The translations under genes and the position numbers were made by a program. 64,000 bases of DNA from Maribacter sp. (lineage in GTDB: Bacteria; Bacteroidota; Bacteroidia; Flavobacteriales; Flavobacteriaceae): NCBI GenBank assembly GCA_024643345.1, contig JAHENB010000064.1, positions 124,001 to 188,000 on the forward strand, written 5' to 3'. Positions 22,214-39,941 of the stretch are shown piece by piece. The notes under the pieces were generated by a model. That model was not told where the DNA came from. It saw nothing but the letters and a program-made list of their open reading frames with translations, and did not search any database. The stretch's first letter is position 1. Each line of letters opens with the position of its first letter.

Positions 22214-22927
22214 ATGTTAGACAAAATCAATTTAGAGCATATTTTGTTCCTCGATATTGAAACGGTCCCTGAAAAGCCCAGTTTTGATGATCTCGACGAC
22301 CTAAAAAAAGAACTTTGGGAGCAGAAATCACTGTATCAAAGGCAAGATGGTATCTCGGCTAGCGAATTTTACGAGCGTGCGGGGATTTGGGCCGAGTTTG
22401 GGAAAATAATCTGCATTTCGGTTGGCTATTTTCATATCAAAGGAGACGTGAGAACTTTCAGGGTCACCAGTTTTCATGGGGATGAAGTGAAATTGCTGAA
22501 GGAATTCAAAAACCTGTTAGCGGGCCATTTCAGCGGTACCAAGCACTTGCTTTGTGGTCACAACAGCAAGGAATTCGATTTTCCTTATATCGCACGAAGA
22601 ATGATCATCAACCGTATTTCCCTTCCTTATAAGTTGAATCTGTTTGGCAAGAAGCCTTGGGAAATACCACATCTCGACACCATGGAGCTATGGAAATTCG
22701 GGGATTTCAAGCATTATACCTCACTAAAACTAATGACCAATGTTCTAGGCATTCCTTCGCCAAAGGAAGATATTGACGGGAGTATGGTCAGAGAAGTCTA
22801 TTATGTAGCAAATGATTTAGATCGTATTATAACCTATTGCGAATTGGATGTGCTTACCACAGCACAAGTCTTTCTCAGGCTTCGCAATGATGCCTTATTG
22901 CGGGAGGATGAAATCATCCATATTTAG
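22214..22927 (+). CDS. Predicted 3'-5' exonuclease, PolB-like DEDD family
   Basis: 237 residues with the RNase-H-like exonuclease layout: Exo I LFLDIETVPE near the N-terminus, GHNSKEFDFPYIARRM as Exo II and YCELDVLTTAQVFLR as Exo III. Stand-alone proteins of this kind (COG3298-like) are common in Bacteroidota and probably trim DNA in repair; the exact role is not established. The last third of the gene has a diverged, truncated copy 1.6 kb downstream (24291-24534), suggesting that a piece of DNA was inserted or duplicated at its 3' end. Confidence 0.85.
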   Translation: MLDKINLEHILFLDIETVPEKPSFDDLDDLKKELWEQKSLYQRQDGISASEFYERAGIWAEFGKIICISVGYFHIKGDVRTFRVTSFHGDEVKLLKEFKNLLAGHFSGTKHLLCGHNSKEFDFPYIARRMIINRISLPYKLNLFGKKPWEIPHLDTMELWKFGDFKHYTSLKLMTNVLGIPSPKEDIDGSMVREVYYVANDLDRIITYCELDVLTTAQVFLRLRNDALLREDEIIHI

Positions 22928-23109
22928 AATGATGCTTCGAACCACTTACTGATATAGGTTTCATAAAGAATACTAGCATATCACTCTACTCTGTTCAAAT
23001 TTGGATACTTGTCTTTACATAAATTGTGCGTTCAAATCTTTGTTGTACTTTCTTAGTTTTTATAAACTATATCTTAATATTGGCAGTAATCCCAAACTAA
23101 AAAAATCAG

Positions 23110-24060
23110 ATGAAAGTGAATTTTAAAAATATTGGTCATACCACTGCCCTAATACTTGTGATATCCGGATTACTTATTACCGGGATAGGTGTATCCCTTG
23201 CAGAGGTTAATTATAGCACTTTACAATCGGGCACGGCACGCGATGAAACAGGGATTTTAGAACTAATATTTATGATTATTGGTGCATTGATTGCACTATT
23301 TGGAGGGCTTTTAACCGTTATCACATTAATCTCCTGGGTATTTGGTACGTTAGTACAACATTTTGGATTTAAAGCTGTCTTTATGGTAGTCGGAACCATA
23401 TGTTTAGGTGTTTATATTTATAGTAGATTTCTTCATACCGATGGCTTAGGCGACCCAATTCCCGTTGGTATGTTGGATGGGACGGTCTATAGGGGACCAA
23501 CTTTTAACGAAGCTGTACTTACTGCGCTTGATCCCGCTACTTCATTACTACTTCTCAATGTTACAGATAGTATAACAGACGGGTATCCATGGTTTCAGGT
23601 GGCATATAACGACTCTTTAAAAGGTTATATATGGGGCAGGAATTTATGCGCACAAGATGTTTGGGTAAATGGTCTATGGGGTCGCTGTTTATCTCATCAA
23701 AAACAACAATCTCTGACTCACCTAAGAGCAAAGGCTAATGACTCTTTGGACGAGCCCATTGATAATATTGAGACCGCATACAAAATGTTGCCAGGTGTTT
23801 GGCGTGAGCCTTCATTTAGCCATGAGTTTAGTCAGCAACGGGAGATAGTTTCTGATGATGATATTATTGGCAGGTGGACAGTAGAAATAGATGACGATGA
23901 TAACTTCCTCGTGTGGCTAAACCTTGAATATTATGGTAAATGGGCATACAGGTCTTCTAAATATAAAATCACTCAACTAGATTCGACATTTCTAAGACTT
24001 AAATTAGGTTCAGAGGCTGGCTACTATACTAGAATATCAGACCAGCGAACTACTAACTAA
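23110..24060 (+). CDS. Membrane protein with SH3-like domain, function unknown
   Basis: 316 residues. Three hydrophobic segments fill the first 105 residues (ALILVISGLLITGIGVSL, IFMIIGALIALFGGLLTVI, VFMVVGTICLGVYIY). A likely periplasmic part follows with a bacterial SH3-like stretch (YPWFQVAYNDSLKGYIWGRN), and at the end a small beta domain (DDIIGRWTVEIDDDDNFLVW). No enzyme motif. The gene lies between the exonuclease gene and a partial copy of that gene, and its bases are more AT-rich than the housekeeping genes to the left, so it may have been acquired. Confidence 0.7.
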   Translation: MKVNFKNIGHTTALILVISGLLITGIGVSLAEVNYSTLQSGTARDETGILELIFMIIGALIALFGGLLTVITLISWVFGTLVQHFGFKAVFMVVGTICLGVYIYSRFLHTDGLGDPIPVGMLDGTVYRGPTFNEAVLTALDPATSLLLLNVTDSITDGYPWFQVAYNDSLKGYIWGRNLCAQDVWVNGLWGRCLSHQKQQSLTHLRAKANDSLDEPIDNIETAYKMLPGVWREPSFSHEFSQQREIVSDDDIIGRWTVEIDDDDNFLVWLNLEYYGKWAYRSSKYKITQLDSTFLRLKLGSEAGYYTRISDQRTTN

Positions 24061-24290
24061 ACTGTATAGCAAATTAAACCTACTGCCAAAACGATAAAAA
24101 TTATGGACTGTTTTTAAGCCCCTAACGAAAAATATCACAGATTTTCCATTCGGTTTGTATTTGAAGAACTAGTTTCTTCAATCACGCAACTAATCTTATA
24201 CAAAGACATTGGCCAAAACATCTTTTTATCGGATTTAAGGCTGTACGACCCTTTCCATTTAAACAGAATTATTTTTAGCTGTTAAATAAC

Positions 24291-24534
24291 GGATCTCTGG
24301 AAATTCGGAGATTTCAAGCATTATACCTCACTAAAACTAATGGCTAACATCCTGTGGATAACATCCCCAAAGGAAGATATTAACGGGAGCATGGTACGTG
24401 ATGTTTATTATGATAAGAACCATCCGGAACGGATCATTCATTATTGCGAATGCGATGTGATCACTGTAGCACAGGTGTTTCTTCGTTTACGAAATGACGC
24501 ATTGCTCGAAGAAAGGGAAATAAAAAAGCGCTGA
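24291..24534 (+). pseudogene. Truncated second copy of the exonuclease 3' end
   Basis: This frame reads LWKFGDFKHYTSLKLMANIL, then SPKEDINGSMVRDVYY and ITVAQVFLRLRNDALLEE before a TGA at 24534. It matches the last third of the 22214-22927 protein (LWKFGDFKHYTSLKLMTNVL...). About 45 bp at its left end are almost identical in DNA to 22688-22735, after which the copies diverge. No start or Exo I/II motifs are present, so it cannot make a working exonuclease, although an internal ATG at 24340 could start a 64-residue peptide. Confidence 0.85.
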
Positions 24535-24718
24535 CCGTCTCAACTATTTCTTAAGCCTTGTTACTGTACACTTACCTAACATCCATTCAGGAAAATGTCA
24601 ACAATCGTCAACCTCCTATTCTAATACCGTTCCAAAGTCCAATCATGATTTGTGTATTTGATTATTCCCATGCACAATTCTAACTTGATTATCTTTAAGA
24701 TAGCTTTAAACTGATAAT

Positions 24719-26962
24719 TTGGTAGATTATTTGATAAAATATAGATATGCTATAGTTGTGCTTCTACTTACTATGGCGGCGTTGGCTGTTCATAGAATAC
24801 CTGCAATTAAAATAAATACAGATTTTTACCAGTTTTTAGACCAGGATGATGATGAATATGTTTTTTTCAAGAAGGTACAATCTCAGCTTAAAGATGACCA
24901 AACCTTGCTCTTACTGGCAATAAAAAATCAACCAACTGTTCTTGAAATAAACTTTTTGAAGAGCATTGATTCTACTGTTCAAAAATTAAAGAATATCGAA
25001 CATGTAGAATCTATACAGAGCATTACAACGCTGTCATACCCTGTTAAATCTTTATTTGGCATAAGTGAAATACCATACTTATCCATTAAGGATAGTATCG
25101 CTCCTAAAATATCAGACACCAAAATTAAAAAGGATGAAAGAATCACCAATTATTTCATCAATGAGAACAGAACCGTTGTACTTCTTTGGATTACCCTAGA
25201 ACAGAATATGTTGGTTTCGGAGAATGAGAAAGTACTGAGTAACATTGATCGTATCAGAAAAGAGTATCATGAAAACGAAACTTTTATTTGGGGCAAGAGC
25301 TATATTAAATTCGCCATGGATGAAATATCTGCAAAGGAAACAGTCGAAAACATCTTGTGGTCGTTCATTGTTTTAATTGGTTTGCTGTTTTTGATGTTTA
25401 AAAGAATCCGGGCAATTTCCTTTGCGATTTTCTGTGTTTTACTTTCTGTTTTGATTTTTTATGGGGGTATGATTTACTTTAATCGCCAATTTGGTCTAAT
25501 GTCCAATTTATACCCTACCATTATCCTTATTGTAGGAATTTCAGATTTTATTCATTTCACTATAAAATACAATGAGGAAATTAGAGCTAATACCTCACCC
25601 AATATGGCCTATCGCAAAACCATCAAGGAAATAGGTTGGGCTATATTCATTACCTCCTTTACCACAGCAATAGGTTTTTTTACACTGATATTATCCCCGA
25701 TGAAAGCCTTAAATAATTTTGGCTTAGAAGCGGGGATTTCGGTTATTCTCACTTTTGTTGTATTCATGGCCATTACCCCTATAGGCTTCTATGGTATCAA
25801 AAAAAACAATCTTTTTGAGCTTCGACCCTCTTTTACAAACATATCGACCACTATCTTAAGAGCTTTGACAAAAACCCAAGATTATCCTAAAAGGGTTGTC
25901 ATGGGTGTACTTTTAATTCTGATTCTTTCAGCAATTGGTATAAAATCTGTGAACACCAACAACCTGCAATATTCAATTCCTACCCAAACGGCGTTTTATA
26001 AGAACTATAGCTTTTTTGAAAAGATACTTGGCGGTTCCAGAACTTTTGAGCTCTATTTTATAGCCAAGGGAGAGGGGCGGCTAAATACTCCTAAAGAATT
26101 AAATGCCATCCATAACACGTACAATTATCTGGATAGTATACCTTATTTGAATCAGGTGAAATCACCAACACTTTATTATCTGCTTATGAATCGGGCTTAT
26201 TGGCCCAATGCGTCATTAGATTCTTTAAACATTACCAATCGTGAAATTGATATCTATGAGAAGGATTTGAGAAAATCTGGCGCTTCAGCTTATCTTATGA
26301 ACCAAAGTAGGACAATGATGAAAATAAGTGGCCAAATGAAAGATATGGGGAGGCATTTGGTTAACCAAAAAAACAATGACCTATTAAAAAAAGTAAATTC
26401 CCTAATTGATACAACTAAAGTGCATGTGCAACTAAGTGGTCTTGATCATCTATTTGACAGAACTCACGAAAGTCGAATTCACAACATGGTCTATGGATTG
26501 CTCACTGCAATCGTAATAATTGCAATTGTTTTGGGGCTTCTTTATAGAAGTTTTCCAATCGTAATAATTGCCTTGATCCTTAACATAATTCCGATAATAA
26601 TTACTGCCGGGATCATGGGCTTAACAACCCTTGAGCTAAGAGCAGGTACCTCGGTAATCTTTACAATCGCCTTTGTCATCGCAGTTGATGATACGATACA
26701 CCTTTTAAATAAATTTAAATGGGAAAGGCAACATGGAAAAAGCATAAAAGAGGCACTTGGTGTAGCTATTCATCAATGTGGCATCGCTATATGGGCAACA
26801 AGTCTAATTCTAGCGGGGGCCTTTTTTGTTTTATTGTTCTCTAACCTTAATGAAATTTTTTCTTTTGGCCTCTTGATTGGAATCGCAATAATTATTGCAT
26901 TCCTAACAGATATACTGCTGACCCCTATTTTGATTTTACATTGGTTCAAAAAATACCTGTAA
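24719..26962 (+). CDS. RND/MMPL-family exporter
   Basis: 747 residues. The start is a TTG (24719); an in-frame stop lies just upstream and no ATG precedes the first membrane helix. Two repeats of one helix, a large extracytoplasmic loop and five helices are seen. The family motifs are GISDFIHFTIKYNEE and AVDDTIHLLNKF in the corresponding helices of the two halves. Proteins of this type (COG1033) export lipids or hydrophobic molecules using the proton gradient. It converges with the BtaA-like gene 27 bp away and lies beside a putative lipid or hydrocarbon operon, so a link to lipid export is possible but unproven. Confidence 0.88.
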   Translation: MVDYLIKYRYAIVVLLLTMAALAVHRIPAIKINTDFYQFLDQDDDEYVFFKKVQSQLKDDQTLLLLAIKNQPTVLEINFLKSIDSTVQKLKNIEHVESIQSITTLSYPVKSLFGISEIPYLSIKDSIAPKISDTKIKKDERITNYFINENRTVVLLWITLEQNMLVSENEKVLSNIDRIRKEYHENETFIWGKSYIKFAMDEISAKETVENILWSFIVLIGLLFLMFKRIRAISFAIFCVLLSVLIFYGGMIYFNRQFGLMSNLYPTIILIVGISDFIHFTIKYNEEIRANTSPNMAYRKTIKEIGWAIFITSFTTAIGFFTLILSPMKALNNFGLEAGISVILTFVVFMAITPIGFYGIKKNNLFELRPSFTNISTTILRALTKTQDYPKRVVMGVLLILILSAIGIKSVNTNNLQYSIPTQTAFYKNYSFFEKILGGSRTFELYFIAKGEGRLNTPKELNAIHNTYNYLDSIPYLNQVKSPTLYYLLMNRAYWPNASLDSLNITNREIDIYEKDLRKSGASAYLMNQSRTMMKISGQMKDMGRHLVNQKNNDLLKKVNSLIDTTKVHVQLSGLDHLFDRTHESRIHNMVYGLLTAIVIIAIVLGLLYRSFPIVIIALILNIIPIIITAGIMGLTTLELRAGTSVIFTIAFVIAVDDTIHLLNKFKWERQHGKSIKEALGVAIHQCGIAIWATSLILAGAFFVLLFSNLNEIFSFGLLIGIAIIIAFLTDILLTPILILHWFKKYL

Positions 26963-26989
26963 AGTTGCCGCCCAAAATATTTTCGGATA

Positions 26990-28105
26990 TCACATGTTAT
27001 ACTTAGTAATGGTATAAGCCGCTACTTTCCCATACACGAATGACCTATCAGTTTTTTGTAAATGAGTAGTCATGGATTGATCTTTTACAATTGAATCCCT
27101 AAGTGATTCCGGGACTTCTCTTGGAATCATAAGGTTTCGGAAAATTAATCGGGCTCCGGGTTTAGCAGTTCTATAGACCGATTTAAAAAGTCGTTCCGTC
27201 TCTGACTCACTCATTAGCTCACAAATATTCGACAATGCAAAGCAGTCAATGCTATTATCTTGCATTTTATCAATCCAGTTCTGTGCCTCTATGGTATGAA
27301 TATGTATCCGATCTAGTTTAGGTCTTATGGTATTGAACGGCACCTCTTTCATGTATTCGGGAACTTCTTTGAGACTTGCATACTTCCCCCTGACATACAG
27401 TGATAAAAAATAGTTGTTTTTGATCGGCATATCCCTGAAGGCATTTTTCGCACGATTGTAAAAACTTTCGGCAAAAGAGGAACTCCCATCATCAAAGTGA
27501 AAGTAATCCGCGGAAAGCCCTTTACGGGCTAGAATATGTTTGTTGAATAATAGTTTATAAATAGCCCTGTAGCGCTTTGTATTCCAGATTTTGTCGTAAT
27601 ATTCTTTTTGTGATTCCAGGGATTTCTCTTCGAATAGTCCATCTATTCTAGTCTTTCCCTGCACCATTTTAAGGAATTTACCGGCAAATCTTACAAATTT
27701 ATCGTACCTGCCATTCATTAAAAATCCCTTTTTAAGCACGTTTTGGTTCTTGTTCCAAAAATAAAGGGCGTCCGGACTAAGGAGCGATTGAAATTTTTCA
27801 AATAGCACCATTCTATTTTGGCATTCTGTTACTCCGGAAAAACATAAAAATTCCTCAAATGTCAAAGACTTCATGGCACAAATCTTTAATTCGAGTAAAA
27901 TGGATTGTGCTGCATTAATGTCTATACTATGTATTTCTTTTGGGTCAAATTGAAGAAACCCCAGCACATTACAACCCCCTGATGTAATGGCCATTACAAC
28001 ATCTCCCGACTTGATTTTTAATGCTTCGTGATCACAAATTGGATCTTCCCAGTTTTGACTGAAAACCAATGCTGTTAATTGTATTTGTTCTTTGGCTTCT
28101 TTCAT
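26990..28105 (-). CDS. DUF3419/BtaA-like aminocarboxypropyltransferase
   Basis: 371 residues. Characteristic features of the DUF3419 family are SQNWEDPICDHEAL at the N-terminus, the SAM-binding VVMAITSGGCNVLGFL, the acidic SIDINAAQSILLELK, and a C-terminal FALSNICELMSESETERL with IFRNLMIPRE. BtaA proteins transfer the 3-amino-3-carboxypropyl group of SAM to diacylglycerol, the first step to betaine lipids; other members act on other acceptors. No BtaB-type N-methyltransferase is adjacent. The start overlaps the stop of the AAR-like gene by 4 bp, so it is the last gene of a coupled operon. Confidence 0.83.
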   Translation of the reverse strand: MKEAKEQIQLTALVFSQNWEDPICDHEALKIKSGDVVMAITSGGCNVLGFLQFDPKEIHSIDINAAQSILLELKICAMKSLTFEEFLCFSGVTECQNRMVLFEKFQSLLSPDALYFWNKNQNVLKKGFLMNGRYDKFVRFAGKFLKMVQGKTRIDGLFEEKSLESQKEYYDKIWNTKRYRAIYKLLFNKHILARKGLSADYFHFDDGSSSFAESFYNRAKNAFRDMPIKNNYFLSLYVRGKYASLKEVPEYMKEVPFNTIRPKLDRIHIHTIEAQNWIDKMQDNSIDCFALSNICELMSESETERLFKSVYRTAKPGARLIFRNLMIPREVPESLRDSIVKDQSMTTHLQKTDRSFVYGKVAAYTITKYNM

Positions 28106-29193
28106 GTTGTGGAGTTATTTTTACTGGCTTCCAATATCCCGTCCGAATTATAAAAAGGTGCAAGTTCAATGCCGTGTTTTAGGCTTAATTCATACATCAG
28201 GTCAATTTTCTCAGAGGTAATATTTCCTTTCCCCATTGAAAAGTTTTCCTTAATCCCCTCAAAAGCCATCAATATGATTTCAATGATACATCCATGGCCT
28301 AAATGTGGTGCCGGATATCGGTAAAACTGTGATGTATAATCCGGATTGAATGAATAACCATGTTTGAGTTGTCCCATTCCGCCATGAAAAAGAAAAACAC
28401 CCGGTACCTTTTCCACTTTTTCCTCTAGGTTTTTTGGATAGCCTGCATCGCAAATTATTACTTTAGGTTTTAGGCTGCTGATGGCAATTTCACTTGAGCT
28501 GGCAACACTGATTATCAAATCAGCCTCAGGAGCCAGTTCACTTAGATCAGATGAGTATTTAACCTCATGGCCTTCATCTAAAAGTCTTTGTCCAAATGTC
28601 TTTAGACGATTCATGTTTCTGGCACATAGCAACAATCGGTTAACCTTACCCTTTAAGTAATTGGTGCAAGCCATCCCAATATCACCTGTAGCCCCTATAA
28701 CCAATACGTTTGATTCGGACATGCTTATCCCATGTTCCCTGGCCGCTTTTTCAAGACCCTTTACAACATAGGCTGAAGTTAAGGAGTTGCCGGTAGTCAG
28801 CACCATATCATAATCTTCAAAATCGTTAAAATTACCTTCCAATAGCAAGGAAGTAAAGCCCCCGAGGATGGCCATTTTAATGTTTAAGTGGTGAACTACC
28901 TTGACGGCGTCCTTTACTTTCTGAATATTGGCCCTAAGATTTTGTGCATTTAGCTTATCCGGAGCGATAAAAGTATCGATGTACAAACCATTTGTTTCAA
29001 TCCCTGTTAAGGATTTGACGTGCATTTTAAAGATACCCCTTGGCGGAATATAATCGTAAATCGCTTTAATTTTACTTATCGGCAACTCCTCCAGTTCCGA
29101 AGTACGCATTACATTTATTAAAGACTGAATATTTGGCCAACTATCTTGATGCCCAATTACCGCAAAATCTATGCTGGGAGTTTGGCGATCCAT
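28102..29193 (-). CDS. Acyl-ACP reductase-like protein (cyanobacterial AAR type)
   Basis: 363 residues. The protein follows the cyanobacterial long-chain acyl-ACP reductase motif by motif: VKSLTGIE, ILGGFTSLLLEG, LTTGNSLTSAYVV, the nucleotide-binding VLVIGATGDIG (167-173 GATGDIG), LLLCARNMNRL, CDAGYPKNL, and HGCIIEIILMAFEG, in which Cys302 falls where the active-site cysteine of AAR lies. AAR reduces acyl-ACP or acyl-CoA to fatty aldehyde with NADPH through a thioester. The gene overlaps the upstream ADO-like gene by 25 bp and the downstream gene by 4 bp. Substrate and product here are inferred from homology. Confidence 0.85.
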   Translation of the reverse strand: MDRQTPSIDFAVIGHQDSWPNIQSLINVMRTSELEELPISKIKAIYDYIPPRGIFKMHVKSLTGIETNGLYIDTFIAPDKLNAQNLRANIQKVKDAVKVVHHLNIKMAILGGFTSLLLEGNFNDFEDYDMVLTTGNSLTSAYVVKGLEKAAREHGISMSESNVLVIGATGDIGMACTNYLKGKVNRLLLCARNMNRLKTFGQRLLDEGHEVKYSSDLSELAPEADLIISVASSSEIAISSLKPKVIICDAGYPKNLEEKVEKVPGVFLFHGGMGQLKHGYSFNPDYTSQFYRYPAPHLGHGCIIEIILMAFEGIKENFSMGKGNITSEKIDLMYELSLKHGIELAPFYNSDGILEASKNNSTT

Positions 29194-29906
29194 ACAATTG
29201 ATTTTTCACCAGGAATTCCAATAGTATCCAATGCTTTCGCATAGAGTGCCAAGGCATTGCCTCGTAAGCTATCTACATTAAGATTTACATGGTGCAATGC
29301 ATTTTTCATACAATCTCCGTTACAAACGCCACAGTGCCCTTTAAGATCGGTTCTGGCAGAAAACTCAGATAGTATCGTCATGCAGTTAAAATGGATCCCT
29401 TCAAACTTTTTAATAAAGGTGTCAGGATCTTTATGTAATTCCTCTTGTAGAAGCTCCACAGAATGGTCCATATGTTCTTTTTCCTCTTCTGCAATCGAGA
29501 GGAATAGTTTTTTAGACGCTCCGCCCAGGGCATTACCTGCATCGGTATACATGGATATAGCGAATGCCTCAAGCATTACTTCCTGTATAATTATACAGGC
29601 GATAAAGTCCTTTTTTGCTGCATAGTTCAAAAACTGCTCCCGAATCCTATTCCAGTATGAGCCTTTTAAGTTGATATTGACATTAAGGCCAAGTTTTTTG
29701 GCATAAGCCATAAACCCTTCCGCATGCCTTCTTTCACTGTCTGCGTGCTCAACGGCCTCCATTTTTTCGTGTGGGTCATCAATTGTTTCTGCCAAAGTTG
29801 CAAAATTGCTCATTCCAATTAGTTCGCCTGTAATAGCTTGCGAATAAATGTCAGAAGTCACATTAAAAACTTCGATGCTCTTAAATTCTTTTTCTTGTGT
29901 TTCCAT
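29169..29906 (-). CDS. Ferritin-like di-iron protein resembling aldehyde-deformylating oxygenase (ADO)
   Basis: 245 residues. The six di-iron ligands of cyanobacterial ADO can be placed: Glu28 (ITGE), Glu58 and His61 (SERRH), Glu113 (QEVMLEAFAIS), Glu142 and His145 (EEKEH). The spacings 58-113 and 113-142 equal those of ADO (73-128, 128-157). ADO converts fatty aldehyde to an alkane one carbon shorter, with formate. Unlike the cyanobacterial proteins, this one has an added cysteine cluster, C192-x2-C195-x3-C199, in the C-terminal part. It is the second gene of the operon, 26 bp after the GNAT gene and directly upstream of the AAR-like gene. Activity has to be inferred from the ligands. Confidence 0.82.
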   Translation of the reverse strand: METQEKEFKSIEVFNVTSDIYSQAITGELIGMSNFATLAETIDDPHEKMEAVEHADSERRHAEGFMAYAKKLGLNVNINLKGSYWNRIREQFLNYAAKKDFIACIIIQEVMLEAFAISMYTDAGNALGGASKKLFLSIAEEEKEHMDHSVELLQEELHKDPDTFIKKFEGIHFNCMTILSEFSARTDLKGHCGVCNGDCMKNALHHVNLNVDSLRGNALALYAKALDTIGIPGEKSIVWIAKLPA

Positions 29907-29932
29907 ATTTTGCTGTTATTGAATTAATGTTG

Positions 29933-30982
29933 TTATACAGTTGAAAAATCCTTGTACGGAATTCCATTTTTAACCGAATCCATTAGCTTTTGGTTATTCT
30001 TCATGGTTACCAACATACCTACTGAATTAAATGTTATCCGAAAAGAACCAGGCAATCTTTGATTCAAAGAATCTTTTTCGTGCAAGCCAAGAGAAACAAA
30101 TGAATAGGATTTGGAACGAACTTCATTTTGAGCTTTTTTGATAAGAGATTTTATAAGTTTCCTATCGTTCCTTTTTACAGCAAGGTATTTGATGTACAAC
30201 ATTTTGATCGGCTGGTTGGTACTTGGCAGTAGGTTGTCGCCAACTATGGTTCTTAAAAGATTCATTATGGATATAAACATTCTTAAATACCAAGGTAATT
30301 TTAATACAATATGTTCCCTGCAGTTGCCGTAATCCACCAAACACATTACTGCTATTAAATCACCGTTTTCCTCAACTTTATAGATAGTGGCATCCTGTAA
30401 ATGACCGGGGTCAACAGCCTGTGCCAATTGATAATTCTCATAGAATTCGTTTAGAAAATCGATTGTTCCTTGATTAAAGGTCGTCCTTTCAACCTGAAAT
30501 TCATTGGTTGATTTCTTTTTAGAACCCAGAAATTGATAAATGTTGAAAATTCCAATATTCTCAAAATCAGGATATTGCGCGCGATTACTAAAAAATACAA
30601 AAGGTCTTTTATTGCCTTTTGAAACATTAAGGAAGACAAAATCCGCATTTTGTTCCTCCATATAAGCTACAGCTTTGTTGGTCAATTGCAGCCCAATCCC
30701 TTTATTTCTATGAGCATACCCGACCCTAAAATCACTGATGTAAAATAATTTACTAGGTATTTTATTGATGAATGCAGTTTCTTGGGTTACGCATATGGTT
30801 CCCACTATTTCATTTTCCTCTTCAGCAACGAATACTTTGCTTAAACCTCTTTTACTTATAAGATTGTAAAAAGAGGGGTCTCTCCTTGTCCTTAATTCTA
30901 TAATCCCCGGCATACTAGCTGAGTTTATCAGTTTCAACAAACGACTATCATCTTTTATAGTAGCTTCTCGATAGATAGCCAT
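29933..30982 (-). CDS. GNAT-fold N-acyltransferase
   Basis: 349 residues. The first 160 residues are a GNAT domain: VFVAEEENEIVGTICV, the strand ISDFRVGYAHR and the acyl-CoA loop RNKGIGLQL. The second half (160-349) looks like a diverged second acyltransferase half (CLVDYGNCREHIVLKLPW, IKYLAVKRNDRKLIKSLI). GNAT enzymes transfer an acyl group from CoA (or ACP) to an amine. It is the first gene of the four-gene operon with the ADO-like, AAR-like and BtaA-like proteins, so an amine-bearing lipid is a plausible substrate (inference). Confidence 0.82.
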   Translation of the reverse strand: MAIYREATIKDDSRLLKLINSASMPGIIELRTRRDPSFYNLISKRGLSKVFVAEEENEIVGTICVTQETAFINKIPSKLFYISDFRVGYAHRNKGIGLQLTNKAVAYMEEQNADFVFLNVSKGNKRPFVFFSNRAQYPDFENIGIFNIYQFLGSKKKSTNEFQVERTTFNQGTIDFLNEFYENYQLAQAVDPGHLQDATIYKVEENGDLIAVMCLVDYGNCREHIVLKLPWYLRMFISIMNLLRTIVGDNLLPSTNQPIKMLYIKYLAVKRNDRKLIKSLIKKAQNEVRSKSYSFVSLGLHEKDSLNQRLPGSFRITFNSVGMLVTMKNNQKLMDSVKNGIPYKDFSTV

Positions 30983-31209
30983 AGTATGCAGTTTATTTAT
31001 TCATAAAAATCGGATCAAATGCGTTGCACCTTATCTCTATTTTAAGTCTTTGTAATTAGCTTTTCGGTTGAAATTTTCTAAAAACAAAAGAATGTAACTT
31101 CTTCCAAAATAATGGGATTTCAATCCTGACAGCACTATGATTGAATCCGAAATAATTTTAAAAATTACTCCAGGAATCATAGTTGATCCTGTCTTATCTG
31201 TCACGAATT

Positions 31210-31620
31210 TTAAATTACAGGAACTTCAATGGTTAAGAATATATCTTGTCCATCAGCGTCTTCCCCTTGATAAAATTTAAAAATATATGGCTCAGATTGT
31301 AGGGCTTGTACAGGTATTGAAAATGTAGTTTCCCTAATATTTTGAGTACAAGGAACACCGTCATCTACATGTCCAATAGGATAGATAAGTCTAGAGGTTC
31401 CTTCATAGAAGTAATCATATTGATCATAATAATAATAACAACTATTCGGTAATTCTATGGTAATATTAATTCGATAAGTACGTCCAAAAATAAATTCATC
31501 CGGAAGATCCGCACTTATAACACTTACATATTCTAGGTGGTAGTCGTGATAGTTGTTGTCATCATTGCTACATCCAAATAATAAAAAAACGACCAGAAAA
31601 AGGGAAATCAGATGTTTCAT
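31210..31620 (-). CDS. Small lipoprotein of unknown function
   Basis: 136 residues. The lipobox is clear: MKHLISLFLVVFLLFGCSNDDNN, with Cys17 as the lipidated residue and an Asp-rich linker as in many flavobacterial surface lipoproteins. The remainder is rich in Tyr and beta-strand residues (FIFGRTYRINITIELPN, EPYIFKFYQGEDADGQDIF) and has two spaced cysteines (SCYYYY, PCTQN) that could form a disulfide. No family is recognised. It stands alone between the GNAT operon and an intergenic stretch. Confidence 0.7.
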   Translation of the reverse strand: MKHLISLFLVVFLLFGCSNDDNNYHDYHLEYVSVISADLPDEFIFGRTYRINITIELPNSCYYYYDQYDYFYEGTSRLIYPIGHVDDGVPCTQNIRETTFSIPVQALQSEPYIFKFYQGEDADGQDIFLTIEVPVI

Positions 31621-31993
31621 AATATTAAAAATTTAAAATATTTACTTCATTTAACGCTAGGAAAACTGTTTTTGGAGATATGTAAATTTACATTTTTTTA
31701 AAATCCGAAGGAAGACCAAATCATTCATATTTACAATTATTACTCCAGATAGATTGTGCCTCATGTTTAAACATGAATACTTGACTACCTCTATCTAATA
31801 TGGTGAGCTTGCATTTAAATATATTGTACTTTGGAAAAAATAAGACGGAAAATGGAAATTGTTCAGGGATATTTTCAGTTCCAATTTGCCCGCATAATAG
31901 TCGATCTCGCAAAAGCACGAACGTACAACAATGGCTATGCGTAATTGCTTCGTTTACGAAACGAATCCCCGGTCGAGATTAAAAAAGCTTAAG
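31621..31993. other. Intergenic stretch without supported gene
   Basis: The 373-bp gap between the lipoprotein start and the nuclease stop contains only short frames lacking motifs (for example at 31800-31982). A partial palindrome TTCGTTTACGAA (around 31949-31960) is the only structure I noted. Confidence 0.5.
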
Positions 31994-32980
31994 CTATTCG
32001 TTATACTTAAGTTGAATGTACACGGGAAAATGATCGCTATATCCCCCTAAATATTTTTTTCCCGCGAAAGTTCTAAAGGGCATTCCCTTGTACTTGCCCC
32101 TGGGTTCGGTCAAATACGATCTGTCAAAGATATTTGCCTCGGTAAAACTGTGCGTGCCCTTTTCATAATTCAAAAAATTGTGGGAAAATATGATTTGATC
32201 GAACATGTTCCATTCGCTTTGGTAATTCGCTGTGCCCCGTATGGGCGACGCCAGCTGTTCCGAGGGATTGTATAAATTTGACATTTGCATAAGGCTTTGC
32301 ATGCTCGGGGAATCTGGATTATCATTGAAATCGCCCATAATAATATAGTTCGAATCGGGCTGTTCGGCTTCGATGTCGGCGATAAAAGCCTTTAAGGTCT
32401 CGGCAGCCTTGATGCGCTTATAATCGGTTTCCAAGACCCCATCCCGTCGCGACGGCCAATGGTTTACGAAAATATGCATATGTTCCCCATTGAGCTTGCC
32501 GTTTACGTAAAGGATGTCCCGGGTGGTATCACGTACCCCGTCGGGGTTGTCTACGATCAAAGCGATCGCTTCTGAATGGAGCACCTCAAAATACGCCTTA
32601 TGATAGATCAATGCCGCATCTATGCCCCTTTCGTCCGGGGAATCATAATGCACGTACCCATATGCTGCCCGATGTAAAGGCTTTGTGGCGATCAGATCGT
32701 TGACCACCTTTTTGTTCTCCACTTCGGCAACGCCTATCAACACCGGCATATCATTGGCGGTATCGACCCCTATTTCAGACATGGTTCTCGCCAATTTATT
32801 TAACTTTTGTTGGTATCTTTTCACCGACCATCCCATTTCCCCCTTTGGCGTAAAGGCAAGGTCGAGCGTGTGATCATCGAAGGCGGTATCGAAAAGGTTT
32901 TCAAGATTATAGAAGGCGATACTGTGAAGGTTGTTGGGAAGCGCGACTTGCTGTTTTTTTTTGAATAATGAAAAACGCAT
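31994..32980 (-). CDS. Endonuclease/exonuclease/phosphatase family protein
   Basis: 328 residues. The fold's motifs are present: IAFYNLENLFDT at the N-terminus, the metal-binding Glu in VAEVENKKVV, IFVNHWPSR, the MGDFNDNPDSPSM stretch and GGYSDHFPVYIQL with the catalytic histidine near the C-terminus. There is no signal peptide, so it appears cytoplasmic. Family members hydrolyse nucleic acids or phosphoesters; the substrate is not evident. It is divergently arranged with hflX, whose promoter lies in the 77-bp gap. Confidence 0.87.
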   Translation of the reverse strand: MRFSLFKKKQQVALPNNLHSIAFYNLENLFDTAFDDHTLDLAFTPKGEMGWSVKRYQQKLNKLARTMSEIGVDTANDMPVLIGVAEVENKKVVNDLIATKPLHRAAYGYVHYDSPDERGIDAALIYHKAYFEVLHSEAIALIVDNPDGVRDTTRDILYVNGKLNGEHMHIFVNHWPSRRDGVLETDYKRIKAAETLKAFIADIEAEQPDSNYIIMGDFNDNPDSPSMQSLMQMSNLYNPSEQLASPIRGTANYQSEWNMFDQIIFSHNFLNYEKGTHSFTEANIFDRSYLTEPRGKYKGMPFRTFAGKKYLGGYSDHFPVYIQLKYNE

Positions 32981-33057: not shown

Positions 33058-34269
33058 ATGCTGGAAAAGAAAACCATAGAATATGAAAAGGTGGTGCTGA
33101 TAGGCGTCATTAATCGGGAACAGGACGAAACCAAGGTAACAGAGTATCTCGATGAACTCGAGTTCCTTACTTATACGGCCGGCGGGGAAGTTTACAGACG
33201 TTTCGTTCAGAAAGTTGATTTGCCCAACCCTAAAACTTTGATCGGTAGCGGCAAAATGTTGGAAGTGGAAGCCTATGTCAACGACAATGATATCGGTACG
33301 GTGATTTTCGATGATTCGCTCACCCCTGCCCAACAGCGAAACATAGAAAAACAGCTACGGTGCAAAATATTGGACAGAACAGGCCTCATCCTGGATATTT
33401 TTGCACAACGGGCCCAAACGAGCTATGCGCGGACCCAGGTAGAACTGGCCCAATATGAGTATCTCCTACCAAGACTTACCGGGCTATGGACCCACTTGGA
33501 ACGACAAAAAGGGGGCATCGGGATGCGGGGACCCGGCGAGACCGAAATAGAAACCGACCGCCGGATTGTAAGGGATCGAATCACCCTGCTCAAGAAAAAA
33601 TTACTGAAGATCGATCGCCAGATGGAAACCCAAAGGGGCAATCGGGGGGCCCTCGTACGTGTGGCACTGGTAGGTTACACGAATGTGGGTAAATCTACCC
33701 TCATGAACGTTATCAGTAAGAGCGATGTTTTTGCCGAAGATAAACTCTTTGCCACTTTGGATACCACGGTACGGAAAGTGGTCATCGGCAACCTTCCCTT
33801 TTTATTGACCGATACTGTTGGGTTTATCCGTAAACTGCCCACCCAACTGATCGAGAGTTTTAAAAGTACGCTCGATGAGGTACGCGAAGCCGATCTGTTG
33901 CTGCATGTCGTGGATATATCCCACCCACAGTTCGAACAACAGATCAACTCGGTGAACAAAATTTTAGCGGAAATAAAAAGCGGAGACAAACGTACGATCA
34001 TGGTCTTCAATAAAATCGACAAATACAAAAACAAGATCATTGCCGATGATGATTTGACAACAGAAAAGACGAGCGAACATTTTACCATAGCGGAATGGAA
34101 AAATACCTGGATGCAACGTGTGGGCGATAATGCCCTATTTATTTCCGCCTTGAACCAAGAAAATCTCGATGAGTTCCGAAAAAGGGTGTACGAAGAAGTA
34201 CGGGACATCCACGTAACCCGTTTTCCCTATAACAATTTTCTTTATCCCGAACACCTTGACGAACATTAA
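33058..34269 (+). CDS. hflX: Ribosome-associated GTPase HflX
   Basis: 403 residues. The HflX domain at the N-terminus carries IGSGKMLEVEAYV, DDSLTPAQQRNIEK and GPGETEIETDRR. The G domain has G1 GYTNVGKSTLMN, G3 DTVGFIRKLP and G4 NKID. HflX splits stalled or stressed 70S ribosomes using GTP. The gene is single and divergent from the nuclease gene; its terminator may be the hairpin at 34549-34573. Confidence 0.95.
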   Translation: MLEKKTIEYEKVVLIGVINREQDETKVTEYLDELEFLTYTAGGEVYRRFVQKVDLPNPKTLIGSGKMLEVEAYVNDNDIGTVIFDDSLTPAQQRNIEKQLRCKILDRTGLILDIFAQRAQTSYARTQVELAQYEYLLPRLTGLWTHLERQKGGIGMRGPGETEIETDRRIVRDRITLLKKKLLKIDRQMETQRGNRGALVRVALVGYTNVGKSTLMNVISKSDVFAEDKLFATLDTTVRKVVIGNLPFLLTDTVGFIRKLPTQLIESFKSTLDEVREADLLLHVVDISHPQFEQQINSVNKILAEIKSGDKRTIMVFNKIDKYKNKIIADDDLTTEKTSEHFTIAEWKNTWMQRVGDNALFISALNQENLDEFRKRVYEEVRDIHVTRFPYNNFLYPEHLDEH

Positions 34270-37396: not shown

Positions 37397-38623
37397 CTAT
37401 TGAAGCATCGATTGTGCCTTTTTAATGCCATTGACAAGGACATCAATTTCCTTCTTCGTATTGTAGAAACTAAAACTGGCGCGAACGGTACCAGGAATTT
37501 TATAGAAATCCATGATGGGCTGGGCACAATGGTGCCCGGTCCTTACTGCAATGCCCAATTTATCTAAAATAGTACCGATATCATAGGGATGTAAGCCTTC
37601 AATATTAAAGGAGATGACCGAAGTCTTGTGCACCGCGGTGCCATAAATTTTTAATCCCTTGATCTGGGACAATTGTTCGGTGGCATAAACCAAAAGTTCA
37701 TGCTCATAGGAAGCGATAGCATCAAAACCAATTTGGTTCATATAATCCAAAGCGGCTCCAAAAGCGATGCCCCCACAAATATTGGGCGTACCTGCCTCGA
37801 ACTTATGGGGAAGGTCGGCATAGGTCGTTTTTTCAAAAGAAACCTCAGCGATCATTTCGCCCCCCCCTTGATAAGGTGGCAGCTTGTTGAGCCAGGCTTC
37901 TTTTCCATAAAGCATGCCAACCCCCGTGGGCCCGCAAATTTTATGGGCCGAAACGGTGTAGAAATCAACATCCAGCTTCCGTAAATCGGGTTTGATATGG
38001 GCTGCGGCCTGTGCGCCATCGATCAGGACCGCCGAACCCACCCGATGCGCCGCTTCTATGATCTCCTCAATGGGATTGATGGTCCCCAAGGCGTTCGACA
38101 CATGGTTGCAGAATACCAATTTGGTTTTAGGGCTCAATAAGCTGTGATAGTCTGCCATGATCAACTCACCTTCCAGGTTCATGGGTATCACTTTAAGGAT
38201 GGCCCCGGTACGCTCACAGAGCATTTGCCAAGGCACAATATTCGAATGGTGCTCCATTGCGGATACCAACAACTCGTCGCCCTTATTTAACAAAGTCGTA
38301 AATCCGTTGGCGACTAAATTTATACTATGGGTGGTCCCGGAAGTAAAAATGATTTCATGGGGTTTGGCGGCATTAAAGTGCTTTTGGATCTTGTGCCTCG
38401 CCTGCTCATACCTGTCGGTGGCCTCCTGTGAAAGGGCGTGTACGCCCCTATGTATATTGGCATTGTAATTTGAATAGTAGTCTACGATGACGTCTATAAC
38501 CTGTTTGGGCGTTTGGGAGGTAGCGGCATTGTCTAGATATATCAAAGGATATCCATTGACCTTTCTTTTTAGGATGGGAAAGTCTTTTCGAATAACTGCG
38601 ACATCTAGGGACGTTGCTATCAT
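37397..38623 (-). CDS. sufS: Cysteine desulfurase SufS
   Basis: 408 residues from the ATG at 38623 (MIATSLDVAVIRKDFPIL); a start at 38650 would overlap sufD and is not needed. The PLP lysine is in TVSAHKICGPTGVG and the catalytic cysteine in RTGHHCAQP. It removes sulfur from cysteine for Fe-S assembly. The start lies one base from the sufD stop, so the two are coupled. Confidence 0.96.
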   Translation of the reverse strand: MIATSLDVAVIRKDFPILKRKVNGYPLIYLDNAATSQTPKQVIDVIVDYYSNYNANIHRGVHALSQEATDRYEQARHKIQKHFNAAKPHEIIFTSGTTHSINLVANGFTTLLNKGDELLVSAMEHHSNIVPWQMLCERTGAILKVIPMNLEGELIMADYHSLLSPKTKLVFCNHVSNALGTINPIEEIIEAAHRVGSAVLIDGAQAAAHIKPDLRKLDVDFYTVSAHKICGPTGVGMLYGKEAWLNKLPPYQGGGEMIAEVSFEKTTYADLPHKFEAGTPNICGGIAFGAALDYMNQIGFDAIASYEHELLVYATEQLSQIKGLKIYGTAVHKTSVISFNIEGLHPYDIGTILDKLGIAVRTGHHCAQPIMDFYKIPGTVRASFSFYNTKKEIDVLVNGIKKAQSMLQ

Positions 38624-38624
38624 A

Positions 38625-39941
38625 TTACAATTCAAAACCCAAACGAACACCCAACTTATTGGCTATTAGCTTGTTGATTCTCGTTTTTAATTCAGGTATA
38701 CGCACACTCTGTAAAACATTATTGGCAAAAGCGTACATCAACAAGGCCCTGGCCTCCTTTTTAGGGATGCCCCGGGATTGAAGATAAAATAGGGCCTCTT
38801 CATCCAATTGGCCAATGGTACAACCATGGGAACACTTCACGTCGTCGGCAAATATTTCAAGCTGTGGCTTGGTGTTGATCGTGGCCTTGTCACTGATCAG
38901 AATATTGTTGTTCTGTTGAAAAGCGTTGGTCTTTTGCGCAATCTTATCCACGATGATCTTCCCGTTGAAGACCCCCGTGCTGTTCTCGCCGTAAATGCCC
39001 TTATAATCTTGATGGCTTTCGCAATTGGGTTCGATATGGTGAACCAAAGTATGGTGGTCTACCAATTGCTTTTCGCCAAGAATGGTAACCCCCTTCAAGG
39101 TAGAATCGATATATTCCCCGTTTTGGAAGAAATTGAGATTGTTCCTGGTCAATTTTCCGCCAAAGGAAAAGGTATGCACGCTCACGGCGCTTTTACTTTT
39201 TTGATTGATGTAGGTATTATCGATCAAAGAAGCGGAACCCAGGTCGTTCTGTACCTTATAATAATCCAAAATGGCACTCTTTGCGGCATATATTTCCGTT
39301 ACCGAATTCGTGAGCACTTCATTGGTAGTCAGGCTTTGATGTCGTTCAATGACCTGTAGTTCGGCATTTTCCTCGACAATGATGAGGTTTCGGGGCTGTA
39401 ACAACAATGCCGTTTCATTGCCAGTTGCAAAATGGATGATCTCAACGGGCTTTTTGGGCATTTTGTTTTTAGGAATATAGATATAGGCCCCTTCCCTGCT
39501 AAAAGCTGTGTTCAAGGTGGTCAAAGAATCGTCCCTAGAAGCAACCTTATTAAAATAAACATCGATGATCTGTTTGTACATGGGCTTTGTCAGTGCCGAA
39601 CTCATTAAGCAGATATCAACACCATCATGGGTGGTTTCTGACAGATAGGAGCTATACATCCCATCGATAAAGACGATTTTATAGGTGTCGATCTCGTGTA
39701 AAAAGTACTTCTTGACATCTTTGTATTCCAGCGCATTAAACTCTTTTGGGAAAATGCTGAAATCTACTTTTTGCAAACTATTGAGCGAAGTATATTTCCA
39801 AGCCTCTTCCTTTTTGGAGGGGAACCCTTTGTTTTCAAAATTCCGTATGGCTTCAGTACGAACATCGTGCACCGGATGGTCGATGTCGACATTGTTCTCA
39901 AACGCCATAAATGAGGCAATCAATTTATCTTTTAAATCCAT
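38625..39941 (-). CDS. sufD: SufD, Fe-S scaffold subunit
   Basis: 438 residues from the ATG at 39941 (MDLKDKLIASFMAFEN); a start at 39989 is possible in frame but lacks support. The right-handed beta-helix core (LVDHHTLVHHIEPNCESHQDYKG region) and the C-terminal CSHGCTIGQLDEEALFYLQSRGI are typical. It pairs with SufB and SufC in the scaffold complex. Confidence 0.96.
   Translation of the reverse strand: MDLKDKLIASFMAFENNVDIDHPVHDVRTEAIRNFENKGFPSKKEEAWKYTSLNSLQKVDFSIFPKEFNALEYKDVKKYFLHEIDTYKIVFIDGMYSSYLSETTHDGVDICLMSSALTKPMYKQIIDVYFNKVASRDDSLTTLNTAFSREGAYIYIPKNKMPKKPVEIIHFATGNETALLLQPRNLIIVEENAELQVIERHQSLTTNEVLTNSVTEIYAAKSAILDYYKVQNDLGSASLIDNTYINQKSKSAVSVHTFSFGGKLTRNNLNFFQNGEYIDSTLKGVTILGEKQLVDHHTLVHHIEPNCESHQDYKGIYGENSTGVFNGKIIVDKIAQKTNAFQQNNNILISDKATINTKPQLEIFADDVKCSHGCTIGQLDEEALFYLQSRGIPKKEARALLMYAFANNVLQSVRIPELKTRINKLIANKLGVRLGFEL

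What the first reader, a model, noticed from the sequence alone, without database searches (positions are those of the whole stretch)
28102..29906. A cyanobacterial-type alkane pair (ADO-like plus AAR-like) in a flavobacterium
Two adjacent, overlapping genes match the two proteins that make alkanes in cyanobacteria. The di-iron protein keeps all six metal ligands (E28, E58, H61, E113, E142, H145) with spacings equal to those of ADO. The reductase keeps GATGDIG, AGYPKNL and the active-site cysteine position (C302). I know this pair chiefly from cyanobacteria; finding it in a Bacteroidota genome with a different gene set around it suggests fatty aldehyde or hydrocarbon chemistry not usually described for the group.
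Basis: partly seen in the sequence, partly recalled or inferred. Interest (0 to 1): 0.88.

Follow-up and report, generated by a model that had tools for sequence, protein, structure and literature searches.

The report
Alkane-type enzyme pair in Bacteroidota operon
A flavobacterium carries, on an acquired piece of DNA, relatives of the two cyanobacterial alkane-making enzymes in a conserved operon with a fatty-acyl-transferase-like and an aminolipid-type enzyme, which hints at an undescribed bacterial lipid pathway rather than a plain copy of the cyanobacterial one.

Summary
Window 29169-29906 (-) is a di-iron protein whose nearest solved relatives, by sequence and by a confident model, are cyanobacterial aldehyde-deformylating oxygenases (ADO); 28102-29193 (-) aligns end to end with acyl-ACP reductase (AAR), catalytic Cys included. 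Both score far below the NCBI equivalog cut-offs: a divergent subfamily. They are not alone: in 25 Bacteroidota loci the order is tandem-GNAT, ADO-like, AAR-like, DUF3419 (24, 25, 25, 20 of 25), with a 25-nt ADO/AAR overlap in 21. The GNAT protein models like N-myristoyltransferase over its whole length; DUF3419 is the BtaA (aminocarboxypropyl-transfer) family. All six metal ligands are kept, but the AAR-docking acids, lid tyrosines and Arg62 of cyanobacterial ADO are not, and a CxxCxxxC loop is added. The ADO-like gene is rare (2 of 395 phylum genomes, 1 of 10 in the genus) and here lies in a 9.07-kb low-GC insertion; four relatives show the empty site. Best reading: the pair makes or trims the fatty tail of an N-acylated, amino-acid-headed lipid; the chemistry is unproven. 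Prior hints exist: a Flavobacteriaceae 'fatty aldehyde decarbonylase' contig in a metagenome paper, and a Kitasatospora structure titled with ADO activity.

The parts
29169..29906 (-). ADO-like di-iron protein, 245 aa (ligands E28 E58 H61 E113 E142 H145)
29310..29333 (-). Cys-rich loop C192-x2-C195-x3-C199 of the ADO-like protein; possible metal or redox site (inferred)
   Evidence: invariant in 25 of 25, C175 in 24 of 25; lies in profile positions 164-204, which no solved ADO matches (41 positions against 23 residues in SeADO); that solved ADOs lack such a motif is recalled, as those 23 residues were not printed
28102..29193 (-). AAR-like acyl-thioester reductase, 363 aa, catalytic-type C302, GATGDIG
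29169..29193 (-). 25-nt overlap of the ADO-like and AAR-like genes
   Evidence: same length in 21 of 25 loci (in L026 and L030 I took an inner ATG as the AAR start)
26990..28105 (-). DUF3419 (BtaA family, SAM-dependent 3-amino-3-carboxypropyl transferase-like), 371 aa, overlaps the AAR-like gene by 4 nt
   Evidence: PF11899 241.5 bits, 20 of 20 relatives match; next to the AAR-like gene in 20 of 25 loci
29933..30982 (-). tandem-GNAT acyltransferase, N-myristoyltransferase-like fold, 349 aa
   Evidence: upstream of the ADO-like gene in 24 of 25 loci
24719..26962 (+). MMPL/HAE3-type exporter, convergent with the operon; probable accessory
   Evidence: PF03176 115 bits; a relative in 4 of the 24 other loci, close only in L022 (44% over 748 aa), weak in L009 (29% over 165 aa)
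22928..31993 (.). 9,066-bp low-GC insertion that carries the operon (36.1% GC against 44.3% and 44.6% in the flanks)
24291..24503 (+). partial second copy (213 nt, 74%) of the 3' end of the flanking exonuclease gene (22684-22896)
31210..31620 (-). small lipoprotein-like ORF inside the insertion, no family above its cut-off
   Evidence: part in the pathway not shown
23110..24060 (+). ORF of 316 aa inside the insertion, no family above its cut-off
   Evidence: part in the pathway not shown

Best explanation
A laterally spread Bacteroidota lipid operon. Shown by sequence or model: an AAR-like reductase with the catalytic-type Cys and the NAD(P)H motif, an ADO-like di-iron protein with all six ligands, an N-myristoyltransferase-like tandem-GNAT protein and a BtaA-family protein, in overlapping or closely spaced genes (which suggests, but does not show, translational coupling). 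Inferred from the families: AAR-like reduces a fatty acyl-ACP (or -CoA) to the aldehyde; the ADO-like enzyme uses O2 and electrons to remove the carbonyl carbon, giving a Cn-1 chain (alkane, or an oxidised Cn-1 product); the DUF3419 protein moves the 3-amino-3-carboxypropyl group of SAM onto an acceptor; the tandem-GNAT protein puts a long acyl chain on an amine, most simply the one that DUF3419 supplies. Most speculative: that these steps join in one molecule, an N-acylated homoserine-type lipid with a trimmed tail, exported by the MMPL protein, and that the CxxCxxxC loop feeds electrons to the di-iron site.
For: ADO fold and ligands. AAR alignment and Cys. Conserved order, and a 25-nt overlap in 21 of 25. 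In the same 395-genome phylum sample ADO-like proteins occur in 2 genomes and full-length AAR-like proteins (560 and 493 bits; next best listed 41.5 bits over 116 positions) in the same 2 (at most five candidates per genome were scored), while DUF3419 occurs in 46. GNAT model: best VIA row Z 24.2, rmsd 3.2, 296 aligned with NMT; model residue 348 of 349 pairs with the end of the NMT range (455 in 2nmt), and 24 of 24 rows end at the same column in V or I while AAR and DUF3419 ends are ragged (the ADO-like ends are exact too). PMC4964394 (passages) gives the C-terminal carboxylate of L455 as the base of NMT. DUF3419 as the aminocarboxypropyl-transferase part of betaine-lipid synthase: PMC10685587 and PMC10491745 (passages). 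Lipid-type neighbours: a desaturase-family cluster behind DUF3419 in 8 of 25 loci (2 of the 8 profiled; one other gene in between in L029), MMPL in 5, a P450 in the DUF3419 position in L022, a START protein in L021.
Against: DUF3419 is absent from three loci that are not cut there (L022, L030, L031), and PF11899 from the genomes of all five loci that lack it (0 of 5; four of the five are MAGs); the GNAT gene is absent from L031; so the four do not always work together. No enzyme in the insertion would obviously give BtaA a hydroxyl acceptor. AAR-ADO docking residues are not kept. No sequence-level match of the GNAT protein to NMT. No chemistry was measured.
Confidence: 0.45

Rival explanations
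1. Plain alkane pathway: the pair makes Cn-1 alkanes as in cyanobacteria, and GNAT and DUF3419 are separate membrane-lipid enzymes that are only co-located.
For: Pair without DUF3419 in L022, L030, L031 and without GNAT in L031; ligands and the Gln110 and Tyr122 equivalents kept in 25 of 25; closest folds are ADOs.
Against: GNAT adjoins in 24 of 25 loci and DUF3419 in 20 of 25, in records labelled with four families; docking acids and lid tyrosines not kept.
Confidence: 0.25
2. The ADO-like protein does another di-iron reaction, for example N-oxygenation or azoxy formation as in the valanimycin/azodyrecin pathways, where a tRNA-using enzyme of the LPG_synthase_C family (VlmA), a ferritin-like protein (VlmB) and MmgE/PrpD-family proteins occur together.
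For: After the 21 ADO rows the next folds are 6d9f (Kitasatospora, titled with aldehyde deformylating oxidase activity, Z 20.4) and VlmB (8wvr, Z 20.2); an MmgE/PrpD cluster in or near the operon in 4 of 25 loci (1 of the 4 profiled); PMC9379638 lists PF03972 pairs and VlmB in such clusters (passages). That VlmA is a tandem GNAT is recalled.
Against: All 21 ADO rows lie at Z 24.4 to 27.3, above VlmB; no flavin N-hydroxylase or aminotransferase among the seven insertion ORFs profiled (a class-V aminotransferase lies outside it at 37397-38650); the GNAT protein gives no PF09924 match at E <= 1.
Confidence: 0.13
3. Both genes are unrelated to fatty aldehyde chemistry (ordinary ferritin-like protein plus shikimate-dehydrogenase-like protein).
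For: Rubrerythrin (31.3 bits; 25 of 25 relatives) and Shikimate_DH (39.8 bits) Pfam matches over their cut-offs.
Against: Full-length AAR alignment at E 8.9e-61, ADOs as the top folds, joint occurrence and order in 25 loci.
Confidence: 0.04

Closest known systems
Cyanobacterial aldehyde-deformylating oxygenase (ADO; PF11266, TIGR04059; PDB 4rc5-4rc8, 6jzu)
   Same: Fold (Z up to 27.3), six ligands, Gln110 and Tyr122 equivalents, place next to an AAR gene
   Different: 63.3 of 222.65 bits for the equivalog; Arg62, lid Tyr21/Tyr125 and docking Glu201/Asp202 not kept; added CxxCxxxC loop
Cyanobacterial acyl-ACP reductase (AAR; TIGR04058; PDB 6jzq, 6jzz)
   Same: Full-length alignment, GATGDIG, catalytic-type Cys294 (C302), Lys80 (K92)
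   Different: 173 of 449.7 bits; basic docking residues Arg73 and Arg79 mostly not kept; ragged C-terminal tail
Eukaryotic N-myristoyltransferase
   Same: Tandem-GNAT arrangement over the whole length, chain end at the same place
   Different: 9-14% identity, no sequence-profile match, bacterial, substrate unknown
BtaA (betaine-lipid synthase, DUF3419/PF11899)
   Same: Same Pfam family over residues 11-364
   Different: No second methyltransferase (BtaB) gene in the operon; acceptor unknown
PigE/KecF aminotransferase-reductase fusions
   Same: AAR-like reductase domain (PigE model 91.7 of 850 bits; 7 plasmid records of 23-24% identity; KecF in PMC6498172, passages)
   Different: Free-standing reductase beside a di-iron protein, no aminotransferase domain
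VlmA/VlmB azoxy pathway
   Same: Ferritin-like protein with a GNAT-type enzyme in one cluster
   Different: ADO is the closer fold; no flavin N-hydroxylase or aminotransferase seen in the insertion

Membership tests
ADO | ADO fold nearest among solved structures | tested here: met
   pLDDT 93.5 model; top 26 Foldseek rows are ADOs; VIA Z 24.4-27.3 for 21 ADO rows, next 20.4
ADO | six di-iron ligands in two EX2H motifs | tested here: met
   25 of 25; first E-E spacing two longer than in SeADO
ADO | score over the TIGR04059 equivalog cut-off | tested here: not met
   63.3 against 222.65 bits
ADO | score over the Pfam PF11266 cut-off | tested here: met
   61.2 against 28 bits for the window protein; 25 of 25 relatives match at E <= 0.001
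ADO | second-sphere residues Arg62, Gln110, Tyr122 (numbers) | tested here: inconclusive
   Gln and Tyr 25 of 25; the Arg62 position is R in 1 of 25, with an invariant Arg one residue earlier
ADO | lid tyrosines Tyr21 and Tyr125 | tested here: not met
   Tyr in 0 of 25 at either position (SeADO numbering mapped by hand)
ADO | acidic AAR-docking residues Glu197, Glu201, Asp202 (NpADO numbers) | tested here: not met
   positions 212, 216, 217: acid in 3, 0 and 0 of 25; the local alignment is weak, about 2 bits
ADO | aldehyde to Cn-1 alkane plus formate | not testable with these tools
   needs an enzyme assay
AAR | catalytic Cys294 and NADPH motif | tested here: met
   C302 25 of 25; G167, G170, D171, I172, G173 25 of 25, T169 24 of 25
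AAR | score over the TIGR04058 equivalog cut-off | tested here: not met
   173 against 449.7 bits
AAR | basic ADO-docking residues Arg73, Arg79, Lys80 (Arg118 not mapped) | tested here: not met
   basic (H, K or R) in 6, 4 and 25 of 25 (mapped by hand)
BtaA / DUF3419 | PF11899 over its cut-off | tested here: met
   241.5 against 28.2 bits; 20 of 20 relatives match
BtaA / DUF3419 | 3-amino-3-carboxypropyl transfer from SAM to a lipid hydroxyl | not testable with these tools
   needs an assay
N-myristoyltransferase | tandem-GNAT fold over the whole length | tested here: met
   Z 24.2, rmsd 3.2, 296 aligned
N-myristoyltransferase | recognised by NMT sequence profiles or NMT chains by sequence | tested here: not met
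   no NMT family in Pfam at E <= 1 for the window protein; no NMT among 42 solved sequences at E <= 0.01 for the family profile
N-myristoyltransferase | C-terminal carboxylate as base | tested here: inconclusive
   chain end in the same place, and at the same column in 24 of 24; catalysis not tested
VlmA/VlmB azoxy clusters | flavin N-hydroxylase (VlmH) beside the ferritin-like gene | tested here: not met
   none among the seven insertion ORFs profiled in the window; in the other 24 loci only nine or ten neighbouring genes were profiled

The most novel reading that the evidence does not exclude
A new class of bacterial lipid: an N-acylated, SAM-derived homoserine-type lipid whose tail is made by an AAR-ADO pair, with an ADO that carries its own Cys-bound redox centre for electron supply, and a bacterial N-myristoyltransferase-type enzyme that acylates a small molecule by means of its C-terminal carboxylate.
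Probability: 0.18. Interest if true: 0.87.

Novelty: new variant of a known kind. Interest (0 to 1): 0.64.

Why it matters
ADO and AAR are described as the cyanobacterial alkane pair, and low ADO turnover and the need for a ferredoxin system limit their use (PMC9743570 and PMC5356278, passages). A divergent, mobile Bacteroidota subfamily with a Cys-rich loop and steady partners gives natural variants to test and makes a question directly answerable: what the pair is for when no photosynthesis is near. The NMT-like partner would extend an enzyme type that I know (recalled) from eukaryotes to bacterial lipid making.

Tried and rejected
Ordinary ferritin or shikimate dehydrogenase: disfavoured. 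Phage or plasmid home: no relative in viral contigs with the ADO protein, A3 or A4 (pattern matches 1, 17 and 116, none confirmed); ADO no match in plasmids; AAR 7 plasmid records of 23-24% identity, six of them annotated (five with an aminotransferase, the closest kind being fusions or neighbours). AAR without ADO in the phylum sample: 293 of 395 genomes have a match at E <= 0.001, but beyond the two true ones the best is 41.5 bits over part of the profile; the match list was cut and only up to five candidates per genome were scored. PF11266 in the 14 named control genomes rang in Synechococcus elongatus and Caulobacter vibrioides, over the cut-off in one of them. DUF3419 in the five genomes that lack it in the operon: 0 of 5. 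GNAT in the genome of L031: nothing at E <= 1e-8, without a positive control. Solved relatives of DUF3419: none (one search gave one arsenite methyltransferase at E 0.3). Solved relatives of the GNAT family by sequence: mostly the first GNAT domain only, plus chance-like matches to a myosin-tail-interacting protein. Sigma-70 and terminator scans near chance (23 against 18.8; 3 against 3.3). A tree with cyanobacterial ADO/AAR was not built: I fetched no cyanobacterial sequences. No model file was in the Python box, so Cys-Cys distances and the substrate channel were not measured. GC of the operon against its flanks in the other 24 loci differs little in most, so low GC is a mark of this host's copy only.

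Papers. Search listings (titles and starts of abstracts, capped) for ADO plus Bacteroidetes, DUF3419, decarbonylase plus reductase, BtaA, hydrocarbon biosynthesis plus Flavobacteri, ADO plus transfer terms and azoxy/VlmB showed no title about this operon; supplements and subscription journals were not searched. Passages only were seen of PMC9743570, PMC4286721, PMC5356278, PMC4964394, PMC10176705, PMC3903477, PMC6498172, PMC10685587, PMC10491745 and PMC9379638. [quoted passage not shown] the passages seen tell of no operon or enzyme work, and whether it is this family is not known to me.
Full report
What is there. On the - strand the window encodes, in transcription order, a tandem-GNAT protein (29933-30982), an ADO-like protein (29169-29906), an AAR-like protein (28102-29193) and a DUF3419 protein (26990-28105); the junctions are a 26-nt gap, a 25-nt overlap and a 4-nt overlap. 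An MMPL exporter (24719-26962) faces them on the + strand.

The ADO-like protein. Pfam PF11266 matches at E 1.6e-16 over residues 14-159 (61.2 bits, cut-off 28) but TIGR04059 only at 63.3 of 222.65 bits. phmmer against solved structures lists 20 ADO chains before anything else, best E 1.5e-13. A model from 25 sequences has mean pLDDT 93.5. The 26 best Foldseek rows are ADOs (TM-score 0.74-0.81 by query length). Re-aligned, 21 ADO rows have Z 24.4-27.3; the next rows are a Kitasatospora protein whose title claims aldehyde deformylating oxidase activity (6d9f, Z 20.4) and the azoxy synthase VlmB (8wvr, Z 20.2). All six ligands are invariant in 25 of 25. The equivalents of Gln110 and Tyr122, whose changes lowered SeADO activity (PMC5356278, passages), are invariant too. 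The equivalent of Arg62, whose change to Ala cost 91% of activity there, is R in only 1 of 25, though the residue before it is Arg in 25 of 25. The lid tyrosines Tyr21 and Tyr125 of SeADO (PMC4286721, passages) are Tyr in none of 25, mostly I or V. The acidic residues by which ADO docks on AAR (PMC9743570, passages) are not kept; instead R215 is invariant and G216 and N217 are each kept in 24 of 25 (this part of the alignment is weak, about 2 bits). Between two helices lies a loop with C192-x2-C195-x3-C199, invariant in 25 of 25, with C175 in 24 of 25. It lies in profile positions 164-204, which stand against only 23 residues of SeADO. My inference is a metal or redox site; nothing here shows a metal.

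The AAR-like protein. The family profile aligns with AAR over positions 10-343 (best E 8.9e-61), and C302 falls on the catalytic Cys294, which reads S in the C294S entry 6jzz. The TIGR04058 score is 173 of 449.7 bits. Of the mapped docking bases of AAR, Lys80 is kept in 25 of 25, Arg73 and Arg79 are basic in 6 and 4.

Distribution. One scan of the 84,980-species collection with two peptide patterns gave 64 pattern matches, of which 24 encode relatives, all Bacteroidota by record title or lineage: Flavobacteriaceae, Chitinophagaceae, Cyclobacteriaceae, Saprospiraceae and less exactly placed MAGs. This is a lower bound, since a relative without either pattern is missed. By sampling: 3 of 299 genomes of the family (the window's own included), 2 of 395 of the phylum (own included), 1 of 10 of the genus (own only). 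In the same phylum sample full-length AAR-like proteins occur in the same 2 genomes (up to five candidates per genome scored), DUF3419 in 46.

Operon. The five without DUF3419 are L017 and L019 (contig ends soon after AAR), L022, L030 and L031; none of their five genomes has a PF11899 match, and four of the five are MAGs. A 25-nt ADO/AAR overlap occurs in 21 of 25 (in L026 and L030 with an inner ATG taken as start); the exceptions are L013 and L028 (gaps of 147 and 27 nt) and L017 and L022 (a thioredoxin-fold gene in between). Neighbours by protein cluster: a PF00487 desaturase-family gene in 8 (2 profiled), MMPL in 5 (L009 only weakly similar), MmgE/PrpD in 4 (1 profiled), P450 in 3 (1 profiled), directly in the operon only in L022.

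The GNAT partner. Its model (pLDDT 92.0) matches N-myristoyltransferases best: the 50 VIA rows shown are NMT entries (one a ribosome complex that includes NMT1), Z 23.1-24.2, with 287-296 residues aligned; Foldseek also lists other GNATs of about 390 residues (3n7z, 2i00, 2ozg) among its first 50 rows, with lower TM-scores by query length (0.49-0.55 against 0.58-0.65). The model's residue 348 of 349 pairs with the end of the NMT range, and all 24 relatives end at the same column (21 V, 3 I), whereas AAR and DUF3419 ends are ragged; the ADO-like ends are exact as well, so exactness alone proves little. The review PMC4964394 (passages) says that the C-terminal carboxylate in catalysis is unique to NMT among GNATs. 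Sequence searches see no NMT kinship, so I claim likeness, not membership.

The DUF3419 partner. [quoted passage not shown] BtaA as an aminocarboxypropyl transferase is named in PMC10491745 (passages).

Mobility. Of nine other genomes of the genus, none has the ADO-like gene. In the four that I examined the exonuclease homologue of 22214-22927 is followed after about 30 to 250 bp by the homologues of 31994-32980 and HflX 33058-34269; the window has 9,066 bp in between, at 36.1% GC against 44.3% and 44.6% outside, with a diverged 213-nt second copy (74%) of the exonuclease 3' end at 24291-24503. The diverged copy suggests import from a related chromosome by recombination (inference). In both trees Algoriphagus boritolerans pairs with Aquiflexum (99/96 and 100/100), while A. 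zhangzhouensis falls elsewhere: in the AAR tree with Aestuariibaculum (99/98), in the ADO tree unresolved within the large group that holds the Flavobacteriaceae; this suggests movement within the phylum. Of nine other window genes tested, none lies in the held DNA of the other 24 loci; only MMPL relatives do, in four.

Mechanism. Best supported: AAR-like makes a fatty aldehyde and passes it to the ADO-like oxygenase; even this rests on homology. What follows is less sure. The near-constant NMT-like and the usual BtaA-like partner argue for a lipid with an amino-acid head and an amide-linked chain; three loci without DUF3419 show that the core is AAR, ADO and mostly GNAT.

Novelty. The enzymes are known kinds; the operon, the Cys loop and the NMT-like partner I did not find described in the listings (open-access library only). 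A Flavobacteriaceae-related contig with a 'fatty aldehyde decarbonylase' gene was reported in PMC10176705, and a non-cyanobacterial structure carries an ADO-activity title (6d9f), so presence outside cyanobacteria is not wholly new. Score 0.64: real, conserved and testable, but without chemistry.

Noticed in passing
window 13586-14911 and 14954-17953 (+): A SIR2_2 plus TIR protein (ThsA-like PADLOC match E 4.9e-11) directly followed by an nSTAND1 NTPase with PKD domains (no PADLOC match of its own); looks like a possible anti-phage defence pair.
   Followed up: partly
window 22684-22896 and 24291-24503: Diverged (74%) partial duplicate of the 3' end of a 3'-5' exonuclease gene in the left part of the insertion, probably left by recombination with a donor chromosome.
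   Followed up: yes
window 7768-11648 (+): DabA inorganic carbon transporter subunit (PF10070) behind a proton-antiporter-type membrane gene (PF00361, probably DabB).
   Followed up: no
L022:10749-11468 and L017:10751-11446: A thioredoxin-fold gene (AhpC/TSA in L022; the L017 one clusters with it) sits between ADO-like and AAR-like genes in two loci whose ADO-like protein has an extra Cys before the CxxCxxxC loop; L030 and L031 have the extra Cys without that gene.
   Followed up: partly
L022:12473-13909: A cytochrome P450 takes the place of DUF3419 in the operon of a Muricauda strain whose genome has no PF11899 match.
   Followed up: partly
L010, L014, L015, L018, L021, L023, L025, L029: Membrane desaturase-family cluster (PF00487 in the two profiled, L010 and L015) at or near the end of the operon; no NCBIfam equivalog near its cut-off.
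   Followed up: partly
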